A DNA stretch of 64,000 nt, from positions 684,001-748,000 of the forward strand of contig NZ_CP051216.1 in the NCBI RefSeq assembly GCF_012516435.1. Reading direction: 5' to 3'. Source of the stretch: Pseudodesulfovibrio sp. zrk46. GTDB taxonomy: Bacteria > Desulfobacterota > Desulfovibrionia > Desulfovibrionales > Desulfovibrionaceae. Positions 31,185 to 64,000 of the stretch are shown piece after piece. The position numbers and the translations under genes were made by a program. Under the pieces are notes generated by a model. The model ran no database searches and was not told where the DNA came from. It was given only the letters and a program-made list of their open reading frames with translations. The stretch's first letter is position 1. Every line of letters starts with the position of its first letter.

Positions 31185-31224
31185 GCCCACCGTCATACAG
31201 AGACTGTGGTTCAGTTTTTTGTCC

Positions 31225-31282
31225 GGTTTAAAAATTTGTCCTTTCAACCTGCCTTTGTGATGGAAGTTGAAATTTTTGAACC
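31225..31282 (+). promoter_or_regulatory. 58-bp dyad: upstream activator site of small-RNA copy 1
   Basis: GGTTTAAAAATTTG and GAAATTTTTGAACC are inverted arms 58 bp end to end, with TGGAAGTT inside as in copy 2 (copy 3 has GCAAGTA, copy 4 GAGAAGTT at that place). The near edge is 112 nt from the -12 element, against 111-113 in copies 2-4. This is the expected position of an enhancer for a sigma54 activator. Confidence 0.65.
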
Positions 31283-31382
31283 AAAGACACGAAAACTCGC
31301 CACTCTTGCCACCAATAAAATTGGCCATCATGTTCCTGAAATATAAGGATATAAAATTTATTTTTGATCGTTCAAAAAGTTT

Positions 31383-31397
31383 GGCACGCTGAATGCT
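31383..31397 (+). promoter_or_regulatory. Sigma54 promoter of small-RNA copy 1
   Basis: TTTGGCACGCTGAATGCTAT has the invariant GG-N10-GC (31383-31384 and 31395-31396) and the TGGCAC -24 box. Predicted start is near 31408. Confidence 0.8.
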
Positions 31398-31407
31398 ATA
31401 AAGAAAG

Positions 31408-31469
31408 CATCTTCCTTTTATTTGCACACGAGAAAACAACAAGCCTCCTCCGGGAGGCTTTCTCGTTTT
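31408..31469 (+). ncRNA. Sigma54-dependent small RNA, copy 1
   Basis: A predicted 62-nt transcript: CATCTTCCTTTTATTTGCAC, then ACGAGAAAACAAC, then the stem AAGCCTCC-TCCG-GGAGGCTT and TCTCGTTTT. The last part pairs with CGAGAAA to extend the terminator. The unit is virtually identical to copies 2-4 at 63.0-63.8 kb, whereas the flanks are not. No start codon lies inside the transcript, so it is non-coding. The unpaired CUUCCUUUU could pair with AAAAGGAAG-type ribosome sites (inference). Confidence 0.75.
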
Positions 31470-31494
31470 CTGAGGGCAGAATCCCAAAAACAGA

Positions 31495-37262: not shown

Positions 37263-38591
37263 TTAGCCCTCGTCATCCTTTGCGAGCATTCGTCGCAACG
37301 TGTCCTTGGAGATTCCCAGTTCACGGCAAGTTGCCATGCGCTTGCCCTTATTACGGGCCAAAGCCACCCGTGCGGCCCTGCGCTTGATCTCGTCCATGGT
37401 GCCATAGAGGCCGCTGGTTCCTTCGCCTCCGGCGGCATCGGGCTGGAGATGGTCAGGCAAGTGTTCCATCTGGATGAAGCCCGACGAACAGAGAATAAAG
37501 GCGTACTCGAGAATATTCTCCAGCTCGCGCACATTGCCGGGAAAGTCGTGCCGCATCAGCACATGCAGGACGTCCTCACTGATGCCCTCGATCTCCTTAC
37601 CTTGCACCGTATTGAACTCGCCGACAAAGTGCTCGACCAGCAGCGGGATATCCTCACGTCGCTCGGTCAAAGGCGGCAGGTCCATAGTCACGACGTTGAG
37701 GCGATAGTACAGGTCCTGCCGAAACCGGCCGTCCGCCACCCGTTTTTTCAGGTTACGGTTGGTGGCAGCCACGATGCGCACATCCGCCCGAACCTCGCCA
37801 AGCCCGCCCAGGGGCTCGAAGGTGCGTTCCTGCAGGAAGCGCAACAGTTTCACCTGCAATGCGCCGGGCAGGTCGCCGATCTCATCAAGAAACACAGTGC
37901 CACCCTCGGCCATCTCCAACCGCCCCGGCTTGTCCGTACGGGCGTCGGTGAATGCCCCGGCCTTGTAGCCGAACAGCTCCGACTCCAGCAGGGTGTCCGG
38001 CAGCGCGCCACAGTTCACGGCCACGAACGGCTTGTCCTTGCGCGGACTCAAGTTATGGATGGCGCGGGCGAACAATTCCTTGCCTGTTCCCGACTCGCCG
38101 AGCAGCAGGACGGTGGCCGAACTCTGGCTCACCTGCGGCATGATGCGAAATATTTTTTCCAGCGCCGTGCTGCGCCCGATGATGTCCTCGAACCGATAGA
38201 GGTCCTTGACCTTGCGCCGCATGACATGGATCTCGGACAGATCGCGGAAGATCTCCACGCCGCCCACCACTTCGCCCTGTGCATTGGTCAGGGGCGAGGC
38301 CGAGATGGACACCGGGACCTTGGTGCCGTCGCTGCGAATGATAAAGATGGATTTGTTGATGATCCGCTTGCCCGCGTGGATGCACTCACCAATGGCACAC
38401 TGCCCGTCGCACACGCTGGACCGGAACACGTCACGGCACTGGCTGCCCACGGCCTCACTGGCCGGGATGCCGGTGATACGCTCGGCAGACTCGTTGAAAT
38501 AGGTGATGTTCCAGTCCGCATCCACGGTAAACAAACCGTCGGCAATGGAGGCGAAGACATCCTTCAATGGTAGATTCTCGGGGAAAGACAT
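37263..38591 (-). CDS. PAS-domain sigma54-dependent transcription activator
   Basis: 442 residues: an N-terminal PAS domain (FASIADGLFTVDADWNITYF) with Cys in SVCDGQCAIGEC that could sense redox or a metal; an AAA+ domain with LLGESGTGKELFARAIHNLS, the sigma54-contacting GAFTDA loop and GGTVFLDEIGDLP; and a Fis-type helix-turn-helix (GKRMATCRELGISKDTLRRM). It probably controls the NifX-like/mrp promoter directly downstream. Its position matches the DVU2106-type activator of the D. vulgaris orp locus. Confidence 0.93.
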   Translation of the reverse strand: MSFPENLPLKDVFASIADGLFTVDADWNITYFNESAERITGIPASEAVGSQCRDVFRSSVCDGQCAIGECIHAGKRIINKSIFIIRSDGTKVPVSISASPLTNAQGEVVGGVEIFRDLSEIHVMRRKVKDLYRFEDIIGRSTALEKIFRIMPQVSQSSATVLLLGESGTGKELFARAIHNLSPRKDKPFVAVNCGALPDTLLESELFGYKAGAFTDARTDKPGRLEMAEGGTVFLDEIGDLPGALQVKLLRFLQERTFEPLGGLGEVRADVRIVAATNRNLKKRVADGRFRQDLYYRLNVVTMDLPPLTERREDIPLLVEHFVGEFNTVQGKEIEGISEDVLHVLMRHDFPGNVRELENILEYAFILCSSGFIQMEHLPDHLQPDAAGGEGTSGLYGTMDEIKRRAARVALARNKGKRMATCRELGISKDTLRRMLAKDDEG

Positions 38592-40516: not shown

Positions 40517-40662
40517 CCCCGTTCTCAGGGCGGGGTGAAAGTCCCCACCGGCGGTGAGCCATTAGTGGTAAGCCCGCGAGCGCCTCCCTCTGTTGGGAGG
40601 GTCAAGCAGACCCGGTGTGATTCCGGGGCCGACGGTGATAGTCCGGATGGAAGAGAATACGA
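40517..40662 (+). promoter_or_regulatory. FMN riboswitch (RFN element)
   Basis: Textbook RFN blocks in order: CAGGGCGGGGTGAAAGTCCC, ACCGGCGGTGAGCC, AAGCCCGCGAGC, a variable CCTCCC/GGGAGG arm, CAGACCCGGTGTGATTCCGG, GGCCGACGGTGATAGTCCGG and ATGGAAGAGAAT closing on CGTTCTC. It binds flavin mononucleotide and lowers expression of the following gene. About 110 bases separate it from ribB, with several GC-rich hairpins that may form the expression platform. Confidence 0.97.
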
Positions 40663-40771: not shown

Positions 40772-41428
40772 ATGATGAATCAGTCTCAACTCGAACAGTT
40801 CGGCGACTCCATCGTGCGAGTCGAAAGAGCGCTCCAGGCCCTCCGCGAGGGCAAGGGCATTCTTGTCACGGACAACGAAGACCGCGAAAACGAGGGCGAC
40901 CTCATCTTTGCGGCAGAGACCCTTACCGACGAACAGATGGCTTTGCTGATCCGCGAATGCAGCGGCATCGTCTGCCTGTGCCTGACCGATGAAAAAGTTC
41001 GCTCCCTGGAGCTGCCCATGATGGTCGAGGAGAACAACTCCCAGTACCAGACTGCCTTCACGGTCACCATCGAAGCAGCCGAAGGCGTCACCACCGGCGT
41101 TTCCGCGGCTGATCGCGTCACCACCATCAAGGCAGCCATTGCCGAAGGCGCCAAGCCTTCCGACATCGCCAGCCCCGGCCACGTATTCCCGCTCCGCGCC
41201 CGCAGCGGCGGCGTGCTGGAACGCGGCGGCCACACCGAAGCCACCGTGGACATGACCCGCATGGCAGGCCTCGCTCCGTGCGGCGTGCTCTGTGAGCTGA
41301 CCAACCCGGACGGCACCATGGCGCGCCTGCCCGAAATCATTGAATTTGCCCTTAAGCACGATATGCCCGTCTGCACCGTGGACGACATCGTCGCCTACCG
41401 CAAACTCAACGAAGCCGTGGCTGCATAA
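40772..41428 (+). CDS. ribB: 3,4-dihydroxy-2-butanone 4-phosphate synthase
   Basis: 218 residues, single-domain form (not fused to RibA). Key segments: [20 protein letters not shown] with acidic metal ligands, [53 protein letters not shown] and [13 protein letters not shown]. Makes the four-carbon unit of riboflavin from ribulose 5-phosphate. Riboswitch-controlled. Two adjacent ATGs are possible starts after AAAGGAGA. Confidence 0.97.
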
Positions 41429-62385: not shown

Positions 62386-62907
62386 ATGAAAATGAAAGGT
62401 CAACGCGTCCTGATGTTTGTGGACGATGTATTTGAGGATATGGAGTTGCTGTATCCCTACTACCGCCTGATCGAAGAAGGCGCTGAAGTTGTCGTGGCCG
62501 GGCCGGAAGCCGGTGCGGTCTACAAGGGCAAGCATGGCTATCCTTTCCGCTCCACCGCCGCCATTGCCGATCAGCAGGCTGGCGATTTCGACCTGCTCGT
62601 CATTGCCGGCGGTTTTGCGCCGGACAAGCTCCGCCGCGATCCCAAGGTGCTGGAGCTCACCCGTGAAATTTTCGAAGCTGGAAAGATCGTCGCCCACATC
62701 TGTCACGCCGGATGGATCCCCATCTCCGCTAAGATCATGGACGGTTTCACCTGCACCGCCACCCCCGGAATCAAGGACGACCTTGAAAACGCCGGTGCCA
62801 CCTGGGTCGATGAAGAAGTCGTGGTGGACCGCAATCAGATCTCTTCCCGCAAGCCGGACGACCTCCCGGCCTTCTGCCGAGCGATCATTGAGCAGGCGAC
62901 CCGCTAA
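62386..62907 (+). CDS. PfpI/DJ-1-family protein (YhbO/YajL-like)
   Basis: 173 residues (MKMKGQRVLMFVDDVFEDME; GGAGG upstream). The nucleophile elbow is IVAHICHAGWIPISAKIMDG with Cys in ICHAG, and AGGFAPDKLRRDPKVLEL is typical of the protease-I-like branch, related to protein or nucleotide deglycases and chaperones. No clear relationship to the other PfpI proteins in the window apart from the fold. Monocistronic. Confidence 0.88.
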   Translation: MKMKGQRVLMFVDDVFEDMELLYPYYRLIEEGAEVVVAGPEAGAVYKGKHGYPFRSTAAIADQQAGDFDLLVIAGGFAPDKLRRDPKVLELTREIFEAGKIVAHICHAGWIPISAKIMDGFTCTATPGIKDDLENAGATWVDEEVVVDRNQISSRKPDDLPAFCRAIIEQATR

Positions 62908-62937
62908 GGTCATCCTCTTTCGCTATCGACAAGACAA

Positions 62938-62976
62938 AGCCCCTCGCGATTCAAATTCGCGAGGGGCATATTTTTT
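62938..62976. terminator. Bidirectional terminator, boundary of the small-RNA array
   Basis: GCCCCTCGCGA / TCGCGAGGGGC stem, T-rich right flank. Ends the PfpI gene and backs onto small-RNA copy 2 on the other strand. Confidence 0.88.
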
Positions 62977-62998
62977 CTCTACGGAACACTGACCCCAG

Positions 62999-63060
62999 AA
63001 AACGAGAAAGCCTCCCGGAGGAGGCTTATTGTTTTCTCGTGTGCAAATAAAAGGAAGATG
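62999..63060 (-). ncRNA. Sigma54-dependent small RNA, copy 2
   Basis: Minus-strand transcript of about 62 nt: CATCTTCCTTTTATTTGCAC, ACGAGAAAACAATAAGCCTC, the stem GCCTCC-TCCG-GGAGGC and TTTCTCGTTTT. It differs from copy 1 at a single base (AACAAT for AACAAC). No start codon lies within the transcript. First of three tandem units, each about 320-420 bp apart. Confidence 0.8.
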
Positions 63061-63071
63061 CTTTCTATAAA

Positions 63072-63085
63072 GCATACGTCGTGCC
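63072..63085 (-). promoter_or_regulatory. Sigma54 promoter of small-RNA copy 2
   Basis: Minus-strand TTTGGCACGACGTATGCTTT: GG-N10-GC with the TGGCAC -24 box. ATGCTTT-ATAG-AAAGCAT spans the -12 region and start site as a 7-bp dyad. Confidence 0.82.
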
Positions 63086-63184
63086 AAACACTCACACAAT
63101 TTCAAATAAAAATTTTATCGCATCAATTCAGTAGTTTAGACATGTCCTCTCTGCATTCTTGATACATCAAAACAACGCCCAAAA

Positions 63185-63242
63185 GTACAAACAATTGAAC
63201 TTCCAGCGTATTACGAGGTGTCGAGGCTAAAAATTTGTATTC
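63185..63242 (-). promoter_or_regulatory. 58-bp dyad upstream of small-RNA copy 2
   Basis: Minus strand: GAATACAAATTTTTAGCCTC at one end, GGAAGTTCAATTGTTTGTAC at the other, TACAAA and TTTGTA facing each other, 58 bp overall, 111 nt from the -12 element. Candidate activator binding site. Confidence 0.7.
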
Positions 63243-63320
63243 TCACCACGCGACGCAAAAAGTGATTCTAGTCGGTAGAGGCAAAACGAAAAGGTGGATC
63301 CAAATTTCATCGTAGGCAAG

Positions 63321-63382
63321 AAAACGAGAAAGCCTCCCGAAGGAGGCTTGTTGTTTTCTCGTGTGCAAATAAAAGGAAGATG
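63321..63382 (-). ncRNA. Sigma54-dependent small RNA, copy 3
   Basis: Core sequence identical to copy 1 except in the terminator loop (CCTCC-TTC-GGGAGG). Just upstream of the predicted start, GAAATCATC replaces GAAAGCATC. Terminated by TTTCTCGTTTTC. Confidence 0.8.
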
Positions 63383-63393
63383 ATTTCTATAAA

Positions 63394-63407
63394 GCATACG
63401 CCGTGCC
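63394..63407 (-). promoter_or_regulatory. Sigma54 promoter of small-RNA copy 3
   Basis: Minus-strand GTTGGCACGGCGTATGCTTT with GG-N10-GC. The dyad over the start site seen in copy 2 is broken here. Confidence 0.82.
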
Positions 63408-63506
63408 AACCGCGCACAGAATTTCGATAAATGTTTTTACAGTATATTTTCAGCAACTTACAGGATGATCTACCAACAACATCATCAAGATGAAAAACGG
63501 CTTTTG

Positions 63507-63564
63507 GTACAAACAATTGTACTTGCGGCCGATTAGGAAGTGTTGAGGCCGAAAATTTGTATTC
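63507..63564 (-). promoter_or_regulatory. 58-bp dyad upstream of small-RNA copy 3
   Basis: Minus strand: GAATACAAATTTTCGGCCTC to GCAAGTACAATTGTTTGTAC; same length, arms and 111-nt distance as copy 2. Confidence 0.7.
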
Positions 63565-63737
63565 TCTCAGGGGGGAAAGTGTGATTCCAAAAAATAGAAG
63601 CATACCCTTTCACCGTTCCATCATCATACAACCGACAATGTCGAAAGTGACACCGGACCAATTTCATATCGACAGATCCGATCGAGTACCGAAATGTTGA
63701 AGACGGGACAGGAATGCAGTGAATGCTCCAGACGCCA

Positions 63738-63799
63738 AAAACGAGAAAGCCTCCCGGAGGAGGCTTGTTGTTTTCTCGTGTGCAAATAAAAGGAAGATG
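63738..63799 (-). ncRNA. Sigma54-dependent small RNA, copy 4
   Basis: Identical to copy 1 over the predicted transcript (CATCTTCCTTTTATTTGCAC to the terminator stem), although the two are 32 kb apart and on opposite strands. Ends in TTTCTCGTTTTTGG. Confidence 0.8.
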
Positions 63800-63810
63800 C
63801 TTTCTTTATA

Positions 63811-63824
63811 GCATTCGGCGTGCC
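63811..63824 (-). promoter_or_regulatory. Sigma54 promoter of small-RNA copy 4
   Basis: Minus-strand TTTGGCACGCCGAATGCTAT with GG-N10-GC; differs from copy 1 at a single base in the spacer. Confidence 0.82.
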
Positions 63825-63925
63825 AAAGAATTGTGCAACTTCAAAATTATTTTTTACTCGCATTATTTCAGTGTGTTACGGTGGAGTAAACATTGACCCA
63901 ACACTCTCTCCAAACATGCCTTTGG

Positions 63926-63983
63926 GTACAAAATATTTAACTTCTCACCATCTGGGGCTGTTCAGGACCAAAAATTTGTATGC
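63926..63983 (-). promoter_or_regulatory. 58-bp dyad upstream of small-RNA copy 4
   Basis: Minus strand: GCATACAAATTTTTGGTCCT to GAGAAGTTAAATATTTTGTA, then C; 58 bp, 113 nt from the -12 element. It lies 17 bp from the window edge, so further units may follow. Confidence 0.68.
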
Positions 63984-64000
63984 CCGATCACGCTGCAGCG

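What the first reader, a model, noticed from the sequence alone, without database searches (positions are those of the whole stretch)
62999..63983. Tandem array of sigma54-dependent small RNAs with fixed upstream dyads
Seen: three units on the minus strand, each with GG-N10-GC, a ~62-nt near-invariant transcript, a terminator hairpin and no start codon. Between units the DNA diverges except for a 58-bp dyad. Known: multicopy sigma54-driven regulatory RNAs exist (Qrr RNAs of Vibrio quorum sensing). Inference: a comparable but sequence-unrelated regulatory system in Desulfovibrionaceae, with an activator that reads the dyad and RNAs that act through the unpaired CUUCCUUUU stretch on AAAAGGAAG-like ribosome sites. 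Several copies would give dose-graded output.
Basis: partly seen in the sequence, partly recalled or inferred. Interest (0 to 1): 0.92.

Follow-up and report, generated by a model that had tools for sequence, protein, structure and literature searches.

The report
Multicopy sigma54 small RNAs targeting porins
Many sulfate-reducing bacteria of one order appear to carry several near-identical tiny RNA genes behind a special type of promoter, and the free end of each RNA matches the ribosome-binding site of the cell's main outer-membrane pore protein, which points to an undescribed way of controlling what enters the cell.

Summary
Three minus-strand units (62999-63983) each carry two palindromic sites 40 bp apart, a sigma54-type -24/-12 promoter, a ~62-nt RNA and a terminator. 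A fourth copy lies at 31224-31475 (+), a fifth elsewhere in the genome (Pseudodesulfovibrio). A covariance model finds the unit in 159 of 348 Desulfovibrionales genomes (36 of 36 in the genus), often in tandem; the hairpin shows compensatory changes; Rfam has no match.

A likely target was found: porins of family DESULF_POR1 (judged the family of DVU0799, major porin of D. vulgaris). Here 17 of 18 bases pair across the porin ribosome-binding site. Over 21 genera, RNAs fit their own porins better than swapped RNAs do (0 of 100,000 permutations as good), although six genera rank eighth or lower. Sites like those upstream of the RNAs also stand upstream of 40 of 68 porin genes examined.

Inferred mechanism: an unidentified enhancer-binding protein switches on several short antisense RNAs that block porin translation, and also acts at porin promoters. 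Transcription, the activator, Hfq and the signal are untested.

The parts
63924..63943 (-). unit 1, promoter-proximal upstream site (GGGTACAAAATATTTAACTT on +)
   Evidence: position matrix, 21.8 bits; 40 bp from its partner
63964..63983 (-). unit 1, promoter-distal upstream site
   Evidence: 14.5 bits
63865..63877 (-). unit 1, IHF-like element (TAAC-N3-CTGA type)
   Evidence: conserved columns at about -52 to -40 of the -24 box in 50 copies; the name IHF is recalled, not tested
63811..63825 (-). unit 1, sigma54-type -24/-12 promoter TGGCACGCCGAATGC
   Evidence: sequence
63738..63800 (-). unit 1, small RNA with terminator; start placed 12 nt after the -12 GC by rule
   Evidence: alignment, covariation and folding
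63505..63524 (-). unit 2, proximal upstream site
   Evidence: 15.3 bits
63545..63564 (-). unit 2, distal upstream site
   Evidence: 11.6 bits
63394..63408 (-). unit 2, sigma54-type promoter TGGCACGGCGTATGC
   Evidence: sequence
63321..63383 (-). unit 2, small RNA with terminator
63183..63202 (-). unit 3, proximal upstream site
   Evidence: 15.7 bits
63223..63242 (-). unit 3, distal upstream site
   Evidence: 15.0 bits
63072..63086 (-). unit 3, sigma54-type promoter TGGCACGACGTATGC
   Evidence: sequence
62999..63061 (-). unit 3, small RNA with terminator
31224..31243 (+). fourth copy, distal upstream site
   Evidence: 18.2 bits
31264..31283 (+). fourth copy, proximal upstream site
   Evidence: 18.3 bits
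31382..31396 (+). fourth copy, sigma54-type promoter TGGCACGCTGAATGC
   Evidence: sequence
31407..31470 (+). fourth copy, small RNA with terminator
   Evidence: 99% identical to the array over 90 bases; folding z -4.97

Best explanation
Each unit is the gene of a trans-acting antisense small RNA. Shown by sequence: a sigma54-type -24/-12 promoter, two fixed upstream sites, an RNA with a ~20-nt mostly single-stranded 5' end and a terminator hairpin, in several copies per genome and across the order. Strongly supported by co-variation: the 5' end pairs with the ribosome-binding site of DESULF_POR1 porin mRNAs. Inferred: an enhancer-binding protein binds the paired sites and, with DNA bending, starts transcription of the copies together; the RNAs block ribosome access and lower synthesis of the porin. 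Inferred, less sure: the same protein also binds upstream of the sigma70-type promoter of many of these porin genes, so that transcription and translation of the porin are set by one regulator, as OmpR and MicF do for OmpF in E. coli (recalled).
For: Own genome: 17 of 18 bases pair over the porin ribosome-binding site, positions -23 to -6; among 732 gene calls in 864 kb (21% of the genome) this site has the best duplex energy. Across 34 genomes of 21 genera, own RNA-porin energies average -25.1 against -20.4 (sd 0.66) when genera are swapped, 0 of 100,000 as good; a first run with 29 genomes gave 0 of 20,000. Examples: RNA UUUUGCUGA with mRNA UCAGCAAAAG in G304, and UUUUGUUGA with UCAACAAAAG in G305 of the same genus; duplexes of 20 bp in G086, 17 in G131 and 16 in G130. 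In 30 genomes 14 of 455 control genes reach the best porin's energy; 22 genomes have none. Porins of the family are in 35 of 35 chosen RNA-bearing genomes and 0 of 14 controls. Upstream sites above 13 bits stand within 300 nt of 40 of 68 porin genes against 28 of 3349 random windows and 19 of 674 AT-rich ones.
Against: No transcript, mutant or binding data. In one search, 18 of 20 shuffled RNAs reach a best energy as low as the porin's on some gene, so the single-genome energy is not significant by itself. Own pairing is not the best for several genera: g13 ranks 17 of 21, g56 13, g2 and g28 10, g25 and g46 8; 6 of 21 genera rank first. Genera are not fully independent. The RNA ends resemble an anti-Shine-Dalgarno, so other mRNAs may be targets; only 21% of this genome was examined. 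The activator was not identified. Hfq was not looked for. The link between upstream sites and pairing strength over 68 porins is weak (Spearman -0.13, p 0.30).
Confidence: 0.78

Rival explanations
1. The RNA is a sigma54-driven antisense RNA but a broad anti-Shine-Dalgarno regulator of many mRNAs; porins are only one visible target.
For: The core CCUUCCUUU resembles the 16S tail (recalled); 14 of 455 control genes pair as well as the best porin; swapped RNAs still pair at -20.4 on average.
Against: RNA and porin leaders change together between genera, including the GCAAAAG part outside the Shine-Dalgarno.
Confidence: 0.3
2. The units are a mobile or selfish repeat that carries a promoter and terminator without a regulatory role.
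For: Several copies per genome, some in tandem.
Against: Compensatory hairpin changes, site spacing of exactly 40 or 52 bp in 50 of 50 genus copies (on which the matrix was learned) and in 22 of 26 two-site copies from other genera, co-variation with the porin. No inverted-repeat pair was reported at 62400-64000.
Confidence: 0.03
3. The upstream sites bind a regulator that is not the enhancer-binding protein, for instance a porin regulator of another family, while the sigma54 activator uses sites not recognised here.
For: The same sites stand upstream of sigma70-type porin promoters, which is unusual for an enhancer-binding protein (general knowledge).
Against: Two sites at fixed spacing about 116 and 156 bp upstream of a -24/-12 promoter with an IHF-like element between is the usual enhancer layout (general knowledge).
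Confidence: 0.2

Closest known systems
Qrr RNAs of Vibrio (recalled)
   Same: Several near-identical copies, sigma54 promoter, enhancer-binding activator, Rho-independent terminator, antisense action.
   Different: No Rfam match to Qrr; a ~62-nt RNA with one main hairpin; target a porin family rather than quorum-sensing regulators; regulator-type sites also at the target's own promoter.
MicF, MicC, RybB, OmrAB type porin-repressing RNAs of enterobacteria (recalled)
   Same: Antisense pairing at the ribosome-binding site of an outer-membrane porin; with MicF the transcription factor also acts on the porin promoter.
   Different: Sigma54-type promoter, several copies, other sequence, other porin family, other order.
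NcS25 of Burkholderia cenocepacia (PMC10117139, passages seen)
   Same: Conserved small RNA whose conserved predicted targets are porins.
   Different: The passages report no sigma54-like motif upstream of ncS25 and constitutive expression.
Four sigma54-dependent ncRNAs of D. vulgaris Hildenborough in the regulons of DVU0653, DVU0679, DVU1419 and DVU2359 (PMC4641369: abstract, sections 5 and 6, passages; PMC3333781: section 21 and passages)
   Same: Sigma54-dependent non-coding RNAs in the same order.
   Different: Each belongs to a different regulator, and the words porin and DVU0799 occur in neither text. Whether one of them is a member could not be checked, as their sequences were not seen.

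Membership tests
Qrr RNA (Rfam) | match to the family covariance model | tested here: not met
   Not among matches at gathering score nor among the 10 matches up to E 5 at 62900-64000
sigma54-dependent RNA | GG-N10-GC promoter at the start | tested here: met
   50 of 50 genus copies aligned, which were selected partly by this motif; 28 of 29 weak model hits
sigma54-dependent RNA | transcription lost without RpoN | not testable with these tools
   needs a mutant
sigma54-dependent RNA | upstream activator sites | tested here: met
   two sites above 8 bits in 26 of 33 copies from other genera, at least one above 10 bits in 33 of 33
porin-repressing antisense RNA | conserved pairing with a porin leader | tested here: met
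   co-variation over 21 genera, with the exceptions listed
porin-repressing antisense RNA | lowers porin synthesis | not testable with these tools
   needs reporter or mutant
Hfq-dependent RNA | Hfq in the genome and binding of the RNA | not tested
   no search for Hfq was made
previously predicted D. vulgaris ncRNAs | same locus or sequence | not testable with these tools
   sequences not in the text seen; no enhancer-binding gene was found in the held DNA around three copies in Desulfovibrio sp. A2 (two of the three loci end close to the copy on one side)

The most novel reading that the evidence does not exclude
One enhancer-binding protein works in two modes: with sigma54 it fires several porin-silencing RNAs, and from helically phased sites it acts on the sigma70-type promoter of the same porin genes, forming an order-wide feed-forward control of the outer-membrane pore. 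In support, a TTG[CA][CA] box lies 25-27, 35-37 or 44-46 bp from the site start in 22 of 34 cases (2000 shuffles of the downstream DNA: mean 1.5, maximum 8; bins chosen after seeing the data, species related).
Probability: 0.4. Interest if true: 0.92.

Novelty: new variant of a known kind. Interest (0 to 1): 0.87.

Why it matters
No small RNA with a known target was seen for this order in the searches made (listings of open-licence PubMed Central papers only). An RNA family and a target that can be followed over 21 genera make post-transcriptional control in sulfate reducers directly testable. The target family includes, as judged from its NCBI name and the paper's description, the major porin DVU0799, reported as highly abundant and suggested to be essential (PMC5686591, passages), so the circuit may govern uptake of sulfate and other solutes. 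RNA-leader pairs with compensatory differences give ready-made experiments.

Tried and rejected
Porin found by a detour: the first target pattern, GTGCAAA-N0-12-GGAAGA, in 36 genus genomes gave the RNA genes themselves plus scattered other hits; it missed the porin because its leader has TTGCAAA. The porin came from the site scan.

Activator: the enhancer-binding gene in the window (37263-38591) was first suspected because it lies near a copy in several genomes. It was dropped: its GAFTDA loop equals that of DVU2106 in the published table, and it was not the best match of any enhancer-binding gene examined in three RNA-bearing genomes of another genus (30 of 51 listed matches had loci). Best reciprocal matches of L061 and L059 were found in all six other RNA-bearing genomes examined, but L061 also in three genomes without a detected RNA, so co-occurrence does not decide. 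L061 was linked to DVU3220 only by its GSFTGA loop, which DVU2394 shares. At 20 ammonium-transporter loci no paired upstream sites were found, and two single weak ones.

Structure: a first hairpin register was one column off (71.0% paired; model R1, not used further) and was replaced.

Rows dropped: G056 (porin fragments only), leaving 34 of 35 genomes; L536 (no start found) and L499 (contig end, G036); 68 of the 113 porin matches were used, the extra ones chosen by hand; L485 was kept although its start codon is uncertain. The 80 loci are a capped list. Model hits were listed in part only. A note of mine says 25 of 29 porins with a site above 14 bits; the recount is 24 of 29.

Full report
What is there. 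The minus strand of 62999-63983 holds three units. Each has, in order, two imperfect palindromes 40 bp apart, an A/T-rich stretch with an IHF-like TAAC-N3-CTGA element about 52 bp before the promoter (column counts over 50 copies; the name is recalled), TGGCACG-N5-TGC, and an RNA of about 62 nt with a mostly single-stranded AUCUUCCUUUUAUUUGCAC end and a terminator hairpin (folding z -2.66 to -4.97 for the four window copies). A fourth copy stands at 31224-31475 on the plus strand and a fifth, diverged, at C1:2910269-2910374 of the same genome. Rfam has no match to these at gathering score; up to E 5 only ten weak matches below cut-off appear.

How far it goes. A DNA search found matches in 28 of 118 genomes: 27 of the genus, own included, and one weak outside. 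Fifty copies were aligned; their hairpin has 97.1% paired cells and 49 double-sided changes against 16.1 in shuffles, 0 of 500 as high, while the number of pairs with such changes is ordinary. A covariance model finds matches in 159 of 348 genomes of the order, in 29 of 59 genera, and in 36 of 36 of the genus. With laxer filters, 17 genomes without a match were searched again together with 12 others; 28 of the 29 matches carry GG-N10-GC, a CUUCC-like or CCUUC-like core by eye, and at least one upstream site of 12 bits or more. Several genomes of other genera have two or three copies within about 1 kb. Record titles and equal contig lengths name the genus as Pseudodesulfovibrio and G142 as Desulfovibrio sp. 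A2.

Upstream sites. In the 50 genus copies, on which the matrix was learned, the two sites are 40 bp apart in 37 and 52 bp in 13. In 33 copies from other genera, not used for learning, all have one site above 10 bits and 26 have two above 8 bits, 22 of these at exactly 40 or 52 bp. An exact-pattern scan of named genomes returned 80 stretches (capped) with 81 matches: 50 of 51 matches in Desulfovibrionales-type records have a site above 8 bits, the exception being cut by a contig end, against 1 of 30 in other records. The latter serve as an internal control.

The target. A scan of 864 kb of this genome for the upstream site led to C1:75391, where CGGTAAAAAAATTTTTACTT, 21.5 bits, lies 131 bp before the start of a porin gene. 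The protein matches NCBIfam DESULF_POR1, outer membrane homotrimeric porin, 531.7 bits against a cut-off of 250. Its leader reads TGCAAACAAAAGGAAGAT over the ribosome-binding site; 17 of 18 bases pair with the RNA. Among 732 gene calls this is the best duplex, but 18 of 20 shuffled RNAs find an equally good duplex on some gene, so this alone proves little.

Co-variation. The porin family is present in 35 of 35 RNA-bearing genomes chosen and in none of 14 controls. For 34 genomes of 21 genera the best own RNA-leader energy was compared with swapped pairs: -25.1 against -20.4 (sd 0.66), 0 of 100,000 permutations as good. Genera are treated as independent, which they are not fully. Single cases are telling: G086 pairs over 20 nt, G131 over 17, G130 over 16; within one genus a C to U change in the RNA of G305 is met by G to A in its porin leader. 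Against this, g13 ranks 17 of 21, g56 13, g2 and g28 10, g25 and g46 8; six genera rank first. Control genes of the same genomes pair as well as the best porin in 14 of 455 cases.

Porin promoters. Of 68 porin upstream regions examined (of 113 porin matches), 40 have an upstream site above 13 bits within 300 nt, against 28 of 3349 random windows and 19 of 674 AT-rich windows. Downstream of the site a TTGCC-like box lies mostly 26, 35-36 or 45-46 bp away (22 of 34 distances in bins chosen afterwards; shuffled mean 1.5, maximum 8; 12 of the 40 have no such box), as expected for a protein that touches polymerase from one face of the helix. In 11 of 13 genomes with both kinds, porins with the site pair better with the RNA, but over all 68 the relation is not significant. 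Whether the protein raises or lowers porin transcription cannot be told.

The activator. This genome has 30 matches to the sigma54-activator domain, 28 of them strong. None could be assigned. Best reciprocal matches of L061 and L059 are in all six other RNA-bearing genomes examined, L061 also in three without a detected RNA.

Known work. D. vulgaris has four published sigma54-dependent ncRNAs under four regulators (PMC4641369: abstract, sections 5 and 6 and passages; PMC3333781: section 21 and passages); the words porin and DVU0799 occur in neither. DVU0799 is described as the major porin, highly abundant and perhaps essential (PMC5686591, passages). No paper on a porin-directed RNA in this order was listed.

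Verdict. What remains inferred is transcription itself, the activator, Hfq and the direction of control at the porin promoter.

Noticed in passing
window 40517-40662 (+): FMN riboswitch, 111.4 bits, in front of a ribB-like reading frame at 40772 (by eye).
   Followed up: no
window 37263-38591 (-): Enhancer-binding protein with PAS and AAA domains and a GAFTDA loop next to an Mrp-like ATPase frame; looks like the DVU2106 regulator of D. vulgaris.
   Followed up: partly
L195:7564-8940: A further enhancer-binding gene lies between RNA copies in genome G133; none was seen near the array of its relative G062 (L191).
   Followed up: partly
L433:15366-15450: The porin promoter of this genome holds an inverted repeat AACCTTCTTGG / CCAAGAAGGTT around the upstream sites.
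   Followed up: no
L265, L276, L279, L284, L288: RNAs of genera g25 and g56 keep AUCCUUCCU but lack the UUUUGC block found in most others.
   Followed up: no
terminator hairpins of many copies, e.g. L026, L191, L262: Hairpin loops recur as GGAUGGUCC, GGACGGUCC or GGGUGGCUCC across genera; meaning unknown.
   Followed up: no
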